Source: Muribaculaceae bacterium (GTDB lineage: Bacteria; Bacteroidota; Bacteroidia; Bacteroidales; Muribaculaceae). Taken from it: a stretch of DNA of 64,000 nucleotides. Of this stretch, positions 29,783-34,959 are shown piece after piece. The first letter of the stretch is position 1; each line of letters begins with the position of its first letter. The position numbers and the translations under genes were made by a program. Location of the stretch: NCBI GenBank assembly GCA_017964485.1, contig JAGCRW010000053.1, positions 1 through 64,000 on the forward strand. The letters run 5' to 3'. The notes below the pieces were generated by a model. It had not been told where the DNA came from, did no database searches, and saw only the letters and a program-made list of their open reading frames with translations.

Positions 29783-29858
29783 CAAAAAAATGCGTACCTG
29801 GCATAATATTTAAATCATAAAAAAAGTGAATATTTTGCCCATTTTTCCACATAATTTC

Positions 29859-29866
29859 TATTTTTG
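29859..29866 (+). promoter_or_regulatory. Predicted -7 box abutting the DUF6377 start codon
   Basis: TATTTTTG ends only 4 bp before the ATGATG at 29871, so transcription would begin at or next to the start codon (leaderless message). Confidence 0.5.
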
Positions 29867-29870
29867 CACT

Positions 29871-31484
29871 ATGATGAAATTGAGGGGCATAATTCTGCTG
29901 GTTTTGGTATTGTGTGGCGCAGTTTTTTTTGCTTGTGCCAACGATTATTTTGCGCATCTCGACAAGTTGATTTCAGAGCACGACTCACGCATCGCAAGCA
30001 AGAAAACGGCTATAGACAAAATCAGGAAGTCGCTGCCAGAGCACGCAACTGATGCTGCCACGCTCAGAAAAGAGTATGACATCAATACTGCCCTTTACAA
30101 GGAGTATCTTGAGTTTCAGAACGACTCAGCACAGAAATATGCTCGCCGCAATATCGAGATTGCGAAGTCACTTGGTGACAGTTCTAAAGTTATCGACAGT
30201 CGCCTCAACCTGACGCACCTGCTCAACAAGGCCTACCTGCTCGATGAAGCCGAATCATTAGTCCACGACATCGACACCACCAGTATGAGTAAGGAGCAGA
30301 AGCTGTTTTATTTCAAAATCCTCTCAGATATGTGTATGTTCAGGATGGAATTTAACAAGGGCAGCAGCTACGAGGCTCTCTACCAGGAGAAACTCACCGA
30401 CTATCGCCTGAAAATCTCCACCCTGTCGGAGCCTGGCAGCGAGCGCAAAATGCTATATCACGCCAACTACCTAAACGACATCGGCAAGACACAAGAGGCC
30501 ATCGCCCTACTAGAAGAAATGCTTAAGGACTACCAGAGCGGCGATCGCACCTTTTCGGTAATTACAAGCAGCTTAGCGTTCTACTACAGCATTCTGGGTG
30601 ACCGTGAGAAGCAAAAACAGCTGCTGGCCATGAGTGCTGCCAGCGACATAGAAGGCTGTATAATGGAGAACTCGGCACTTAGGCAGCTAGCCGACATCCT
30701 CTTCGATGAGGGAGATGTCGACCGAGCCTACCGGTATATCAACATCAGCGTGTCGGACGCTAACTTCTACGGCACTCGTCTGCGAAACGTGCAGGCGTCG
30801 CAGCTAGTGCCGCGCATTATCAAGGCCTATCAGGAGAAACAAGAGAAGAACTACCGCAATATGCGCAATTTCATTATTGCGCTGAGTGTGCTGGCGCTTT
30901 TGCTCATAGCAGGTGTCGTTGCCCTCACCATGCTCTACAAGCGCTATCGACGCCTTAGCGAGAGCCGCAAACGCATAAACGAGAAACTAGAGAGCACTAA
31001 CCAGCAGCTCCAGGAGCGCGACAAGATCAAGGAGCAGTACTTGGGGCGTTTCCTCACCTTCAGCAGTTCGCTTATCGACAAAAACGAAGTACAGCGCAAG
31101 GCCTTGAATCGCCTGGCAATGGAGAACAAAGATAAAGAACTGAAATCGCAGCTCAAGAGTCCGCACTTCGAATACGAGAACGCCAAACTTTTCTACCAGA
31201 ATTTTGATTCTGCATTCCTAAATATCTATCCCAATTTCATCGAGGCAGTAAACAGACTCATGGAGCAGGGCCAGCAAATCGAACCTAAAGAAGGCGAACA
31301 GCTCTCCCGCGAATTGCGCATCCTCGCACTTATCCGCCTTGGCATCACCGACAACAAAGAGATTGCCAGCATCCTGCGGGCATCTATCGCTACAGTCTAT
31401 ACCTATCGCTCTCGCCTAAAAGCTCGCGCAATCAATAAAGACACCTTCGAAGACGACATAAAGCGCATTCAGGCAATGTCGTAA
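29871..31484 (+). CDS. DUF6377 family membrane-anchored TPR/HTH transcriptional regulator
   Basis: A 537-residue protein. Signal peptide or first membrane anchor (residues 1-25), then TPR-like helical repeats to about 315, one transmembrane segment near 330-353 (NFIIALSVLALLLIAG), a coiled coil (RINEKLESTNQQLQERDK), and a C-terminal LuxR-type helix-turn-helix (LRILALIRLGITDNKEIASIL through SRLKARAI). This is the DUF6377 layout in Bacteroidota: periplasmic or outer-membrane sensing coupled to a cytoplasmic DNA-binding tail. Target genes unknown. A 3' fragment of a closely related gene remains at 32602-32752. Confidence 0.85.
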   Translation: MMKLRGIILLVLVLCGAVFFACANDYFAHLDKLISEHDSRIASKKTAIDKIRKSLPEHATDAATLRKEYDINTALYKEYLEFQNDSAQKYARRNIEIAKSLGDSSKVIDSRLNLTHLLNKAYLLDEAESLVHDIDTTSMSKEQKLFYFKILSDMCMFRMEFNKGSSYEALYQEKLTDYRLKISTLSEPGSERKMLYHANYLNDIGKTQEAIALLEEMLKDYQSGDRTFSVITSSLAFYYSILGDREKQKQLLAMSAASDIEGCIMENSALRQLADILFDEGDVDRAYRYINISVSDANFYGTRLRNVQASQLVPRIIKAYQEKQEKNYRNMRNFIIALSVLALLLIAGVVALTMLYKRYRRLSESRKRINEKLESTNQQLQERDKIKEQYLGRFLTFSSSLIDKNEVQRKALNRLAMENKDKELKSQLKSPHFEYENAKLFYQNFDSAFLNIYPNFIEAVNRLMEQGQQIEPKEGEQLSRELRILALIRLGITDNKEIASILRASIATVYTYRSRLKARAINKDTFEDDIKRIQAMS

Positions 31485-31606: not shown

Positions 31607-32458
31607 ATGAAAAAGATTATATTATCGCTTTTGGCAATGGTAGCCGTGTTTGGAACAATGAGGGGGCAATCTAGTACTATAGAATTCAACAATGTCAATA
31701 CTGATAAATGTCATGTTGACACTATTGAAATTTCGCTGGATAGTCTTTTGAAAGGATTTCATAGTTTAGAGATATTGGGATTACCTCAAAGCCTACCTGA
31801 AGATGGTGGTACAAATATTCTATGCGATAGTCATTACGATTCTTATATCAGCAATGGTTTAAATCCTGATGATAATCCTCCTGTATCAATGTACCTTACT
31901 GATAATTATTATTATAATTGGCATGATATTGCTATTGCCATCTCAAAATTATTAAAAAAGAATGGCATGTATGAATATGGAGTTGACAGGCTTCTATGTA
32001 TCTGTTCAATGATTGACCCATTAAAAACGCTTAATTGTGAACAAGGTGACACATTATATTTTATTGAAAGTATAGACCTTCAAGAAACATTTTATTTGCG
32101 CTTTTGGGTCAATTCGAATATTTCCAAGAAGCAATGTTATCAAACAGAATGGACAAAAACACACTCACCAATACTTAATGAATATACATCTTCATTAGTA
32201 GATTACCAGGACAAGCTCATTCTGAAGTGGAATAAAGACAGATTAATAGAAGAATCAAACTTCATCAACAAATGGTTCCCTACTATAAATAAACTTCCCA
32301 CAAGGAGTGTTTTCAGGATAATTCTTAAAGAAAGAACTAGATTTATAATTGATTTTTTTAAGTATGATGGCTACATAACTCTAGAAAAAGATTATATTGA
32401 AGATTATAAACAGGACTATGTGCCATTTCCAGAAATACCATCTCAGTATATTCATTAA
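31607..32458 (+). CDS. Exported hypothetical protein, AT-rich
   Basis: A 283-residue protein with signal peptide MKKIILSLLAMVAVFGTMRGQ. No family is recognised. It contains a YYYNW aromatic patch and ends VPFPEIPSQYIH. The DNA is markedly richer in A and T than its neighbours, with Asn, Lys, Ile and Asp codons dominant, which suggests recent acquisition. It lies between the intact DUF6377 gene and the fragment of a second one, as if placed into that paralogue pair. A terminator follows at 32494. Confidence 0.75.
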   Translation: MKKIILSLLAMVAVFGTMRGQSSTIEFNNVNTDKCHVDTIEISLDSLLKGFHSLEILGLPQSLPEDGGTNILCDSHYDSYISNGLNPDDNPPVSMYLTDNYYYNWHDIAIAISKLLKKNGMYEYGVDRLLCICSMIDPLKTLNCEQGDTLYFIESIDLQETFYLRFWVNSNISKKQCYQTEWTKTHSPILNEYTSSLVDYQDKLILKWNKDRLIEESNFINKWFPTINKLPTRSVFRIILKERTRFIIDFFKYDGYITLEKDYIEDYKQDYVPFPEIPSQYIH

Positions 32459-32601: not shown

Positions 32602-32752
32602 AGAATTATGATTCTGCGTTCCTAAATATCTATCCAAATTTCATCGAGGCAGTAAATAGACTCATGGAGCAGGGCCAGCAAATCGAACCAAAAGAAGACG
32701 AACAGCTCACCCGCGAGTTGCGCATTCTCGCCCTTATCCGCATCGGCATCAC
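32602..32752 (+). pseudogene. 3' fragment of a second DUF6377 regulator gene
   Basis: This 151-bp stretch aligns without gaps to 31198-31348 of the intact DUF6377 gene, with 12 base differences by hand count. In the same frame it encodes SAFLNIYPNFIEAVNRLMEQ and on to LIRIGIT, then LRT and a stop. Only four residues differ (F to Y, G to D, S to T, L to I), so most changes are silent. There is no start codon and the helix-turn-helix is cut, so it is a dead remnant. The rest of the 356-bp gap holds two terminators and nothing else I recognise. Confidence 0.88.
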
Positions 32753-32765
32753 GTTGCGGACCTAA

Positions 32766-32795
32766 AGAAAAAATGCAGCCCGTTAGGACTGCATT
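32766..32795 (-). terminator. Terminator of the VWA / small-protein unit
   Basis: On the minus strand AATGCAGTCC, loop TAACG, then GGCTGCATT and a run of six T. It lies 20 bp beyond the stop of the gene at 32815-33240. Confidence 0.85.
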
Positions 32796-32814
32796 CATTG
32801 AGTTGTAAGCCTTA

Positions 32815-33240
32815 TTAGTTGTCTTGCGTTTTCTTGATGTACATATATTTTGGGTAGCGGCCGAGTACGAAGAGGGTAACCGGGCAGAGCCAGATCTCGC
32901 GCTCAAAGCCTGGCAGATCATTGACGGTGTAGAAGGAACCGCCTGTGAGTGAATGCTCGCCTTGCACGAGTTCGGCATAGCCTGGCAAATCCTTGCGCTT
33001 GCTGCTTGGAATGACATCAACACATGTAGTCTTGCCGTCATCACTCAAAAAGTCACACAGCTTGTCGGCACCAGCCACCATCAGCAGATTGTGGTGGTCA
33101 AATGGCCAGTTGGGGAAATCGACATACCAGAGTCCGTCATCCTCGTTATTGAACTTGAGGTGATATTCACTTTGCTGGCCAAACACGCTATTGGCAATAG
33201 TTTGCGCACCATTTAATAAATTGCTGATTGAATAAGTCAT
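32815..33240 (-). CDS. Small cytoplasmic protein, possibly DUF6717, partner of the VWA protein
   Basis: A 141-residue protein without signal or membrane segments. It has an aromatic/acidic N-terminal half (EYHLKFNNEDDGLWYVDFPNWPFDHHNL) and a C-terminal basic end (YMYIKKTQDN). It reminds me of DUF6717 but I cannot confirm that. It is 67 bp downstream of the VWA/macro-like gene on the same strand, with no promoter-like box in the gap and a terminator after it, so the two make a two-gene operon. Confidence 0.72.
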   Translation of the reverse strand: MTYSISNLLNGAQTIANSVFGQQSEYHLKFNNEDDGLWYVDFPNWPFDHHNLLMVAGADKLCDFLSDDGKTTCVDVIPSSKRKDLPGYAELVQGEHSLTGGSFYTVNDLPGFEREIWLCPVTLFVLGRYPKYMYIKKTQDN

Positions 33241-33307
33241 AATCTTGTTATTTAAAAAAGGTAATATTGAAAAAGTGAAGAGAGGAGAGAGATGAGCTAG
33301 TTTAAAA

Positions 33308-34555
33308 TTACATCTTCAGACCGAGAATTTTCCAGAACTCGGCTGGCAATGACACGTTCTCGAGGTTGATGCAGCATTTGAACAGGGGTGCCACGTCATT
33401 GATGTCGTGTCTGGCAATGCCGCACCCCACTCGAGTAACAAGGAATCGCATCTCGGGATGCTGGTCGGCAAATTGAGCGAAGCGTTGCACGGCTTCGGCC
33501 ATCTGCTCAATAGGACAAGTGGTTGGGATGGCATAGCTCTTGCCTTGCAGGCCCTCACCTTGTCCCCAAACTGCGCCGAAGCGTGCCATTGCATCACCTG
33601 CTGCCCCACCGCTGTGGAAACCCTGAGGATTGCTGCCAAAGACGAAGATCTCACCTTCATGCAAGTCGTAGATTTGGTCAGGAGTAACGCGGTTCTCGTA
33701 ATACTCGCTTGCCATTTGGCGCTTGCGCCTAATCCATTCCTCCCTTGATTTTCCGCTTCTTTGACGCATTTCCATGTCCATTTTGCGGAAGTAGTTGCGC
33801 TTTGCCGAGCTCTCACGATCCCAGGAGCTTCTCACACCTCTTATGTCATGGCTGAACTCAATCACATTGTTGATTGAAAGATTGAAGCTCACGCCCTTCA
33901 CGTCGTGGTTACTTCCCATGTAGGAGAACGACCAACCCTCTTGCGTGAGTTTCTCGATAAACTCCTTAAGGGCGGCACCGGTCCACTCTTGCGAAGCATT
34001 CTCATAGCCGTCGGTGAGCACTGTCACAACCGCGTTGGCATCATCATCGTCCTTGATGAAGTTATACAACTCGGTGATTGACTGTCCCATGGCGTCATAG
34101 AGTGGGGTACAACCGCTTGGGTTATAGTTGTTGAAATCCTCAACTTCGGCAATTGGTTTGCGATTGTACAAGGTGCGTACTGGCTCGGAATAATTGTTGG
34201 TGTCAAAAGTGACCAAGGTGAGGAAATGTTCCTGGGTGTCGGCAAACTCCTGCTGTGCTCGACGAATGGAGTTGATAGTCTCGTTCACTCCCGATTGTGT
34301 GGCCTCTTTGAGGCTGCTCATAGAGCCGCTCTCATCAACGATGATTAGGTTGTAAATGCGTGCTTTCTTTGCGATGTTCTCTGAATTGTTCATCTCTTGC
34401 TGGTTTTGGTTTGTGTTTTCGCTGTTCATCTCTGTTTGATTTTTGGATGGTTCATTACTCTTATTGGTTCTCTCATTGTTTTCGCCACTGTTACTAGTGG
34501 TTTCTTCGCTGGCATTAATGCAAATTAGTTTCTTGAAAAAGTTAGATAAAATCAT
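33308..34555 (-). CDS. Fusion protein: von Willebrand A domain plus macro-like (A1S_2505-type) domain
   Basis: A 415-residue cytoplasmic protein in three parts. Residues 15-60 are a low-complexity Asn/Glu/Ser linker. Residues about 66-240 are a VWA domain of TerY type with an intact MIDAS: D74-x-S76-x-S78 in DESGSMSS, T150 and D182 (LTDGYEN). Residues about 302-412 (IFVFGSN through LPAEFWKIL) resemble the phage-associated A1S_2505 domain, with GGAAGDAM, GQGEGLQGKSYAIP and TRVGCGIA; these recall macro-like ADP-ribose-related folds, which is inference. No homologous pair is known to me by function. Controlled by three operators immediately upstream. Confidence 0.8.
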   Translation of the reverse strand: MILSNFFKKLICINASEETTSNSGENNERTNKSNEPSKNQTEMNSENTNQNQQEMNNSENIAKKARIYNLIIVDESGSMSSLKEATQSGVNETINSIRRAQQEFADTQEHFLTLVTFDTNNYSEPVRTLYNRKPIAEVEDFNNYNPSGCTPLYDAMGQSITELYNFIKDDDDANAVVTVLTDGYENASQEWTGAALKEFIEKLTQEGWSFSYMGSNHDVKGVSFNLSINNVIEFSHDIRGVRSSWDRESSAKRNYFRKMDMEMRQRSGKSREEWIRRKRQMASEYYENRVTPDQIYDLHEGEIFVFGSNPQGFHSGGAAGDAMARFGAVWGQGEGLQGKSYAIPTTCPIEQMAEAVQRFAQFADQHPEMRFLVTRVGCGIARHDINDVAPLFKCCINLENVSLPAEFWKILGLKM

Positions 34556-34582
34556 GTTAGTTTTATTGTTTTGAAATATGGT

Positions 34583-34654
34583 GTGTAATTTTTACACAAC
34601 AAAATTAGTGTGTAAATTTTACATGACAAAATATTTTACGTGTAAATATTACAC
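34583..34654. promoter_or_regulatory. Three palindromic operators GTGTAA-N3-TTACAC
   Basis: Sites at 34583-34597 (GTGTAA TTT TTACAC), 34610-34624 (GTGTAA ATT TTACAT) and 34640-34654 (GTGTAA ATA TTACAC), with centres 27 and 30 bp apart, so roughly on the same face of the helix. The -7 box lies between the first two. The pattern suggests cooperative repression. The remaining gap up to 35015 is AT-rich and has only the promoter of the next gene. Confidence 0.82.
34600..34607 (-). promoter_or_regulatory. Predicted -7 box for the VWA operon
   Basis: TAATTTTG on the minus strand, between operators 1 and 2; the start site would fall inside operator 1, 40-50 bp before the start codon. Confidence 0.6.
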
Positions 34655-34959
34655 ATTTAATATCTTTTAACATAAACACTATCAAAAACGGTTGTTTTCG
34701 ACAGGTTGAACAAAAATGAAATCTGTTTAGGATAAATGGATATTTCCTTTATTAGTTTTTCATATCTCGTTTCGCTGCAATAAATATACAAAATGCGTGC
34801 CAAAGGTCCAAAAGCCCAGAAATCTGCCATTTTGTTCGAATTTATGATTTTGATTATGCCAACTGACATAATAGTTTAATTACCTATGTTATAAGAATTT
34901 AGTTTTTTAAATGGTTTTGATTTTGAATTGAGGGTGTTTATTTGCCTTATATAATGTGA

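What the first reader, a model, noticed from the sequence alone, without database searches (positions are those of the whole stretch)
32766..34654. Two-gene unit: VWA/macro-like fusion plus small protein under one tightly controlled promoter
The fusion of a TerY-like von Willebrand A domain (intact MIDAS) to an A1S_2505-type, macro-like domain, paired with a small cytoplasmic protein and closed by a terminator, does not match a system I can name. VWA plus macro/ADP-ribose-type domains recur in stress and anti-phage contexts, so a role in sensing or signalling by ADP-ribose or in conflict is possible. It sits next to decayed and AT-rich DNA, an accessory-region sign.
Basis: partly seen in the sequence, partly recalled or inferred. 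Interest (0 to 1): 0.72.

Follow-up and report, generated by a model that had tools for sequence, protein, structure and literature searches.

The report
NrtR-controlled ADP-ribose response gene pair
The shared promoter of these two neighbouring genes carries three copies of a DNA signal that also precedes this genome's NrtR-sirtuin genes and an ADP-ribosylglycohydrolase gene, so the pair is likely switched on by a predicted ADP-ribose-sensing repressor and would help deal with ADP-ribose-tagged molecules, perhaps during phage attack.

Summary
The two genes are real. Gene 1 (33308-34555, - strand) encodes a VWA domain with MIDAS residues fused to an A1S_2505-family domain; gene 2 (32815-33240) a DUF6717 protein; a terminator-like hairpin follows. 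The pairing is real but optional: DUF6717 lies within the fetched flanks in 7 of 42 relatives, and both also occur as one fused chain. The decisive feature is the promoter: three copies of GTGTAAnnnTTACAC bracket a Bacteroidetes-type -33/-7 promoter. Pairs of such sites recur in 25 of 42 relatives' loci versus 1 of 38 lower-ranked loci, with the -7 box at a fixed offset in 27 of 31 pairs. In 27 of 42 loci an NrtR-type NUDIX repressor lies nearby, in 11 an ADP-ribosylglycohydrolase. One NrtR was found in this genome, in an NrtR-sirtuin-A1S_2505 operon; operator-like sites precede it, the other A1S_2505 genes and, as predicted, the one ADP-ribosylglycohydrolase found. I conclude that the pair belongs to a dispersed NrtR regulon, likely induced by ADP-ribose, for handling ADP-ribose conjugates: a new variant of predicted NUDIX-repressor/ARG systems (PMC9503650). 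Binding, inducer, enzymology and any anti-phage role are inferred; Macro homology of A1S_2505 was not supported.

The parts
33308..34555 (-). Gene 1: 415-aa VWA + A1S_2505-domain fusion; residues 1-59 at low confidence (likely disordered) in the model
33770..34363 (-). VWA domain (aa 65-262) with MIDAS D74-x-S76-x-S78 / T150 / D182
   Evidence: phrog_7371; columns; fold match
33335..33649 (-). A1S_2505-family domain (aa 303-407), signature FVFGSNxxGxHxGGAA ... YAIPT ... VTRxGCGxAxxxxxxxAPLF
   Evidence: NF049995 E 3.1e-38
32815..33240 (-). Gene 2: 141-aa DUF6717 protein
   Evidence: PF20475 E 7.9e-22; phrog_24162; model pLDDT 86.8
34640..34654 (-). Operator-like site O1, upstream of the -33 element
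34610..34624 (-). Operator-like site O2, in the -33/-7 spacer (one mismatch)
34583..34597 (-). Operator-like site O3, just after the -7 box, expected to overlap the start of the transcript
34600..34630 (-). Promoter-like TTTG-N19-TAATTTTG (Bacteroidetes -33/-7; consensus recalled)
   Evidence: conserved offset
32771..32796 (-). Terminator-like hairpin after gene 2

Best explanation
The window carries a two-gene unit, a VWA-A1S_2505 fusion plus a DUF6717 protein, whose promoter is bracketed by three operator-like palindromes and is likely repressed in trans by the one NrtR-family (NUDIX-winged-helix) protein found in the genome, and predicted to be released when ADP-ribose or a related derivative accumulates. 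Shown from sequence: the palindromes; their fixed geometry around the promoter; the same kind of site upstream of the NrtR-sirtuin-A1S_2505 genes, of an A1S_2505-DUF1810 gene and of the one ADP-ribosylglycohydrolase found in this genome (90.7% complete); and the recurrent presence of NrtR, ADP-ribosylglycohydrolase and DUF6717 genes near this fusion in relatives. Inferred: that NrtR is the protein that binds; that ADP-ribose is the inducer; that the A1S_2505 domain binds or hydrolyses ADP-ribose conjugates; that the VWA domain holds a protein substrate or partner through its MIDAS metal; and that DUF6717 is an accessory subunit working in the same complex. In this model the induced set clears or processes ADP-ribosylated molecules, made by an invader such as a phage or by NAD-consuming enzymes of the cell such as the co-regulated sirtuin.
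For: Sites: 2 exact matches in 2.73 Mb, both here. The window-derived motif in relatives: 24 of 83 module genes versus 9 of 263 other ORFs with a site (at most 1 mismatch) within 300 bp upstream (Fisher p 5e-10); 45 sites versus a shuffle mean of 0.1. Site pairs in 25 of 42 VWA-A1S_2505 loci versus 1 of 38 lower-ranked loci, and in none of the 42 in 10 shuffle rounds; -7 box at offset 42-49 in 27 of 31 dereplicated pairs, null mean 1.2. One NrtR found in the genome, with a site 11 bp before the called gene start (L119). Three A1S_2505 genes in the genome, each in a gene or gene run with a site upstream. The one ADP-ribosylglycohydrolase was located first; a site was then found about 80 bp upstream with the -7 box at offset 45. 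Within the fetched flanks of 42 loci: NrtR in 27, ARH in 11, DUF6717 in 7 (BLAST labels). In 31 genomes of the genus, full-length NrtR is present in 12 of 13 genomes with the fusion and in 4 of 18 without (p 0.0002). In 7 of 8 genomes whose fusion has no NrtR beside it, NrtR lies elsewhere with an operator-like site. Control: 0 of 12 loci of winged-helix-less NUDIX proteins have a site (L187-L198). The own NrtR matches 'ADPR responsive transcriptional repressor' NF050029, E 1e-41, below its cut-off. Single-chain DUF6717-VWA-A1S_2505 fusions exist.
Against: No binding or enzyme data. NF050029 matches below its equivalog cut-off (143 of 400 bits). A1S_2505 shows no profile similarity to the Macro family (hhalign probability under 1%) and no PDB sequence match. 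17 of 42 relatives lack a site pair; by gene class the 300-bp test gave NrtR 13 of 25, fusion 11 of 41, ARH 0 of 11, DUF6717 0 of 6. G448 has the pair and degenerate sites but no NrtR was found, at 97% completeness; 3 of 17 genus NrtR loci have no site (L173, L180, L182). DUF6717 was not labelled in 35 of 42 loci, and on 16 viral contigs no module neighbour was labelled. The degenerate own-genome pattern was widened after the C98 site had been seen.
Confidence: 0.62

Rival explanations
1. Housekeeping: the regulon handles NAD-consumption by-products. The co-regulated CobB-like sirtuin would make O-acyl-ADP-ribose, A1S_2505 and ADP-ribosylglycohydrolase proteins would turn it into ADP-ribose, and NrtR would read the ADP-ribose level; the VWA-DUF6717 pair would be a scaffold in that turnover, with no conflict role.
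For: NrtR-SIR2-A1S_2505 gene run in this genome, with SIR2 next to NrtR also in L171, L172 and L180; sirtuin keeps its catalytic motifs and matches NAD-dependent deacylase models, below their cut-offs; no PADLOC match of weight; same gene order around the pair in a congener.
Against: Patchy, rearranging gene sets, A1S_2505 and DUF6717 relatives on viral contigs, and a VWA-plus-partner design that a small-molecule pathway would not obviously need.
Confidence: 0.3
2. [quoted passage not shown]
For: Same ingredients (NUDIX repressor, ARG, vWA, ADPr-processing domain) as in PMC9503650 section 3.8; partly similar gene sets (A1S_2505, VWA, small NUDIX, ARH, in L279 also a sirtuin) on putative proviral contigs L246, L249, L252, L279.
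Against: A sirtuin is coupled in the NrtR gene run here, whereas the published search template looked for absence of coupled transferases or sirtuins; neighbours were not systematically scanned for defence genes; no phage data.
Confidence: 0.3
3. The repressor is of the sugar-responsive NrtR branch (AraR/XylR-like) and the pair answers a pentose, not ADP-ribose.
For: AraR is an NrtR-family regulator in Bacteroides with tandem sites (PMC4666351, passages); AraR_C matches the own NrtR at 28.8 bits, over its cut-off of 23.8.
Against: NrtR_WHD scores higher (65.7 bits); the Nudix box is intact in the own NrtR and in 30 of 53 distinct NrtR-like ORFs by a strict pattern, while the AraR paper reports it impaired in AraR and in NAD-metabolism NrtRs; the targets include sirtuin and ADP-ribosylglycohydrolase genes.
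Confidence: 0.08

Closest known systems
ARG-centric systems with NUDIX or WYL repressors (PMC9503650, Viruses 2022, section 3.8)
   Same: NUDIX-HTH repressor, ADP-ribosylglycohydrolase, vWA, additional ADPr-processing domain, variable gene content
   Different: Reported there from actinobacteria, planctomycetes and diverse proteobacteria; here Bacteroidales, VWA fused to A1S_2505, DUF6717 as partner, a coupled sirtuin, targets at four places in this genome, and an operator motif defined; phosphatase partners were not searched for
NrtR-family regulators (NAD-metabolism NrtR; AraR/XylR of Bacteroides, PMC4666351)
   Same: NUDIX plus NrtR winged helix; more than one site per promoter
   Different: Targets are sirtuin, ADP-ribosylglycohydrolase and A1S_2505 genes, not NAD synthesis or pentose use; Nudix box intact in this genome's copy; operator not compared letter by letter with published ones
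A1S_2505 family phage non-structural protein (NF049995)
   Same: C-terminal domain is a member by score
   Different: Here fused to VWA on the chromosome; no function found in print (listing)
Macro domains (PF01661)
   Same: Motif order and predicted strand/helix order of A1S_2505 can be laid on the Macro core (my reading by eye)
   Different: No profile or PDB sequence support

Membership tests
NrtR regulon | Repressor with NUDIX plus NrtR winged helix in the genome | tested here: met
   PF00293 and PF21906 in the C21 protein
NrtR regulon | Shared palindromic site at target promoters and at the repressor's own promoter | tested here: met
NrtR regulon | Repressor binds the site and ADP-ribose releases it | not testable with these tools
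   needs gel shift or footprint
ADPR-responsive NrtR (NF050029) | Score above the curated equivalog cut-off | tested here: not met
   142.9 bits, cut-off 400
ARG-centric system (PMC9503650) | ADP-ribosylglycohydrolase in the system | tested here: met
   near the fusion in 11 of 42 loci; in this genome one ARH elsewhere with an operator-like site
ARG-centric system (PMC9503650) | NUDIX or WYL one-component repressor | tested here: met
ARG-centric system (PMC9503650) | No coupled ADP-ribosyltransferase or sirtuin | tested here: not met
   SIR2 between NrtR and A1S_2505 in L119
ARG-centric system (PMC9503650) | Coupled phosphatase (in a little over 55% of published cases) | not tested
   not searched for
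VWA domain | Fold and MIDAS DxSxS...T...D | tested here: met
   a strict motif script found all three motifs in 38 of 55 distinct fusion ORFs (the other 17 were not inspected)
Macro domain | Profile similarity to PF01661 | tested here: not met
   hhalign probability 0.1-0.3%
Macro domain | Macro fold | tested here: inconclusive
   A1S_2505 part never folded alone; VWA fills the listed fold matches
A1S_2505 (NF049995) | Score above cut-off 45 | tested here: met
   130.4 bits
DUF6717 (PF20475) | Score above cut-off 27 | tested here: met
   78.3 bits
TY/SseB-type chaperone for DUF6717 | Chaperone fold | tested here: inconclusive

The most novel reading that the evidence does not exclude
Bacteroidales own a dispersed ADP-ribose stimulon: one NUDIX repressor reads ADP-ribose released from tagged molecules and de-represses a scattered set of ADP-ribose processors, among them a new effector class in which a MIDAS-bearing VWA clamp, a catalytic A1S_2505 ADP-ribose-conjugate hydrolase and a DUF6717 subunit find and strip ADP-ribosylated proteins, giving inducible immunity to phages that ADP-ribosylate their host; viruses carry their own A1S_2505 proteins for the same chemistry.
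Probability: 0.22. Interest if true: 0.8.

Novelty: new variant of a known kind. Interest (0 to 1): 0.6.

Why it matters
It turns two unnamed genes into members of a testable regulon with a defined DNA signal, a named candidate repressor and a candidate inducer. It gives a functional context to two families without known function: A1S_2505, with relatives on many viral contigs, and DUF6717, named in no paper of the library searched. It also extends a purely predicted class of ADP-ribose response systems to Bacteroidales, with a sirtuin inside the regulon. If the A1S_2505 domain acts on ADP-ribose conjugates, the viral copies would become candidate counter-ADP-ribosylation enzymes.

Tried and rejected

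Macro homology of A1S_2505: profile comparisons with 10, 82 and 151 A1S_2505 sequences against 21 Macro proteins gave probabilities of 0.1-0.3%, no better than a DUF6717 control. The motif correspondence that I see is a reading by eye. This genome has no PF01661 match.

Solved structures: the caspase rows for the 415-aa protein have E 0.12 or worse; rejected as chance. DUF6717 alone: no hit.

Defence library: PADLOC hits for the pair and for nine partner proteins are weak or off-target.

Sites as a genome-wide count: the degenerate pattern has 6 places against 4 for the reversed control pattern, so the count itself is not enriched; position is the evidence. The C5 and C115 sites, and the 1-mismatch sites on C2, C46 and C98:101715, do not front recognised ADP-ribose genes; the ARH site is a 2-mismatch site outside that pattern.

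The short ORF 34657-34869 has no family match; it and the antisense ORFs over the pair were taken as spurious.

Literature: no paper in the library names DUF6717. The two that name A1S_2505 and the two that name DUF1810 were seen as listings only. Searches for the combined system returned PMC9503650, nothing, or papers not followed up. PMC9503650: section 3.8 whole plus passages. PMC4666351: passages. All other papers: listings. PMC2330246 is not held.

Full report

THE PAIRING. Among 4526 relatives of the first protein (best 120 listed), five listed ones are 549-565 aa chains that carry DUF6717; in the three I read it is N-terminal, before VWA and A1S_2505. The scan of named genomes kept 80 of 548 relatives; the 42 that match over most of the length are L038-L079. 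Within their fetched flanks (up to 6 kb) BLAST labels give NrtR in 27, ADP-ribosylglycohydrolase (ARH) in 11 and DUF6717 in 7 (counted from its listing). In the genus sample 5 of 13 full-length loci have DUF6717 next door (L200 and L206 are cut at contig ends). DUF6717 itself is rare: 2 of 295 genomes of the order, this one included. So the partner is genuine but optional.

THE PROMOTER. Upstream lie three palindromes, GTGTAAnnnTTACAC with at most one mismatch, spaced 27 and 30 bp. Read on the minus strand, the promoter is TTTG-N19-TAATTTTG, which fits the -33/-7 consensus of Bacteroidetes (consensus recalled). O1 lies before -33, O2 fills the spacer and O3 follows -7. That is a layout for tight repression.

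THE SIGNAL IS CONSERVED. The motif was taken from the window and tested on relatives (some of the 42 loci are contigs already glimpsed, for example L041 and L011). Within 300 bp upstream it occurs (at most 1 mismatch) at 24 of 83 module genes (NrtR 13 of 25, fusion 11 of 41, ARH 0 of 11, DUF6717 0 of 6) versus 9 of 263 other ORFs (p 5e-10); some of the nine may share the region. In all there are 45 sites against a shuffle mean of 0.1; 22 of 41 loci had any such site and 19 of 41 two or more (L059 was dropped for lack of an anchor ORF). A pair of sites 24-70 bp apart (at most 2 mismatches) occurs in 25 of 42 of these loci and in 1 of the 38 lower-ranked loci, which are mostly single-domain matches (p 2e-8), and in none of the 42 in 10 shuffle rounds; 17 of 42 lack a pair. 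For geometry I used 71 loci, the 42 plus 29 others, most of them chosen because sites had been seen in them. Pairs spaced 50-58 bp number 52, or 31 after removal of similar ones; the -7 box TAnnTTTG falls 42-49 bp from the upstream site in 27 of 31 (45 or 46 bp in 19), while shuffled spacers give 1.2 on average and 5 at most. The sites therefore bracket a promoter by design.

THE REPRESSOR. Near the gene in many relatives is a NUDIX protein with an NrtR winged helix (PF00293 and PF21906, three proteins scanned), and between or beside them an ADP-ribosylglycohydrolase (PF03747, two proteins, best E 2e-61). L020 has the order partial NrtR-like gene, ARH, VWA, A1S_2505, the last two as separate genes. 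In the window's genome one NrtR was found (genome 90.7% complete), on contig C21, in the order NrtR, sirtuin, A1S_2505, with GCGTAAAACTTACAC just before NrtR and just after a TAATTTTG box, as O3 is in the window. In the genus sample 14 of 17 loci of full-length NrtR (L170-L185, L199) have operator-like sites: directly upstream in 12 (in L178 and L199 inside an over-long ORF call) and upstream of the gene run in 2; L173, L180 and L182 have none. None of 12 loci of NUDIX proteins without the winged helix (L187-L198) has a site, and none of 16 loci brought in by VWA-only matches (L210-L225) has a pair (counted from its listing). Full-length NrtR occurs in 12 of 13 genus genomes with the full-length fusion and in 4 of 18 without it (p 0.0002). 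Eight of the 13 show no NrtR in the fetched 1.5-kb flanks of the fusion (in G661 the contig ends there); seven of the eight carry NrtR on another contig, all seven with an operator-like site; G448 has none.

THE REGULON IN THIS GENOME. There are three A1S_2505 genes: the window gene, the one in the NrtR-sirtuin run, and an A1S_2505-DUF1810 fusion on C98 with GCGTACTTTTTACAC 63 bp upstream. The model predicted that an ADP-ribosylglycohydrolase gene would be a target too. One was found, on C41; a site (2 mismatches, GCGTAAAAACTACAC) lies about 80 bp upstream. At both the C41 and the C98 gene the -7 box is 45 bp from the site, as in relatives. Sites with at most 2 mismatches are expected about 2 times per 64 kb, so one in a given 300 bp has a chance near 0.01 (my arithmetic), before the geometry is counted. 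Caution: the degenerate pattern was widened after the C98 site was seen, and site number alone is not enriched (6 places against 4 for the reversed pattern).

HOW IT LIKELY WORKS. NrtR proteins of Shewanella and Synechocystis lose DNA binding with ADP-ribose (stated in PMC4666351, passages). Here the repressor's nearest named model is the ADPR-responsive repressor NF050029, but well under its cut-off. Its Nudix box is intact, as in 30 of 53 distinct NrtR-like ORFs by a strict pattern, so it might also consume its ligand. The sirtuin and ARH targets fit ADP-ribose chemistry. I infer that a rise of free ADP-ribose or a derivative lifts repression; that A1S_2505 binds or cleaves ADP-ribose conjugates; that VWA, which PMC9503650 regards as a Mg-dependent peptide-binding chaperone, grips the protein; and that DUF6717 is an accessory subunit. 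None of these steps is shown.

WHAT SPEAKS AGAINST. A1S_2505 has no profile similarity to Macro and no PDB sequence match. By eye, its motif and strand/helix order can be laid on the Macro core, but that is not evidence of homology. Anti-phage function lacks direct support: PADLOC gives nothing of weight. DUF6717 relatives on 16 viral contigs have no labelled module neighbours, though one of these contigs carries an A1S_2505 gene far away (L236 and L273 are one contig). Of 361 viral relatives of the first protein the best 80 were kept; 77 of these loci have an A1S_2505 label, and no listed match covers both domains.

COMPARISON. PMC9503650 (Viruses 2022; section 3.8 read whole) predicted ARG-centred systems with NUDIX or WYL repressors, vWA or other chaperones and Macro/NADAR domains, as countermeasures to viral ADP-ribosylation. 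It names actinobacteria, planctomycetes and diverse proteobacteria. The present set works like that, but it carries a coupled sirtuin, which that search template excludes, and in this genome it is dispersed over four places. I therefore call it a new variant and do not file it as a strict member.

On re-reading the calls I corrected the duplicate to 32602-32752 and the C98 distance to 63 bp, added the genus co-occurrence test, and described the control loci and the choice of loci more exactly.

Noticed in passing
window 32602-32752: 151-bp duplicate, 92% identical, of 31198-31348 in the DUF6377 gene (29826-31484); with ORF 31607-32458, which has no family match, it looks like an insertion between that gene and the pair, absent in congener L123.
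   Followed up: partly
L120:3668-5624 and L210-L225: A separate conserved two-gene unit: a VWA-only protein next to a ~390-aa protein without Pfam match, labelled in 11 of 16 VWA-only loci of the genus, without site pairs.
   Followed up: partly
L279, also L246, L249, L252: Putative proviral contigs with an A1S_2505 gene divergent from a VWA gene, and small NUDIX, ARH and (L279) sirtuin genes: a partly similar gene set, host not determined.
   Followed up: no
L084:281-6639: Same-strand run ARH, NrtR, two DUF1810 proteins, A1S_2505-DUF1810, two DUF6717 proteins, VWA; suggests that DUF1810 belongs to the same ADP-ribose toolkit.
   Followed up: partly
L018:2846-3844: A gene that looks like a TIR-domain protein (by eye) lies convergent to an NrtR/VWA-A1S_2505 gene pair.
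   Followed up: no
G448 (L201): Complete pair with degenerate sites but no NrtR found in a 97% complete genome; possible loss of the repressor with decay of its sites.
   Followed up: no
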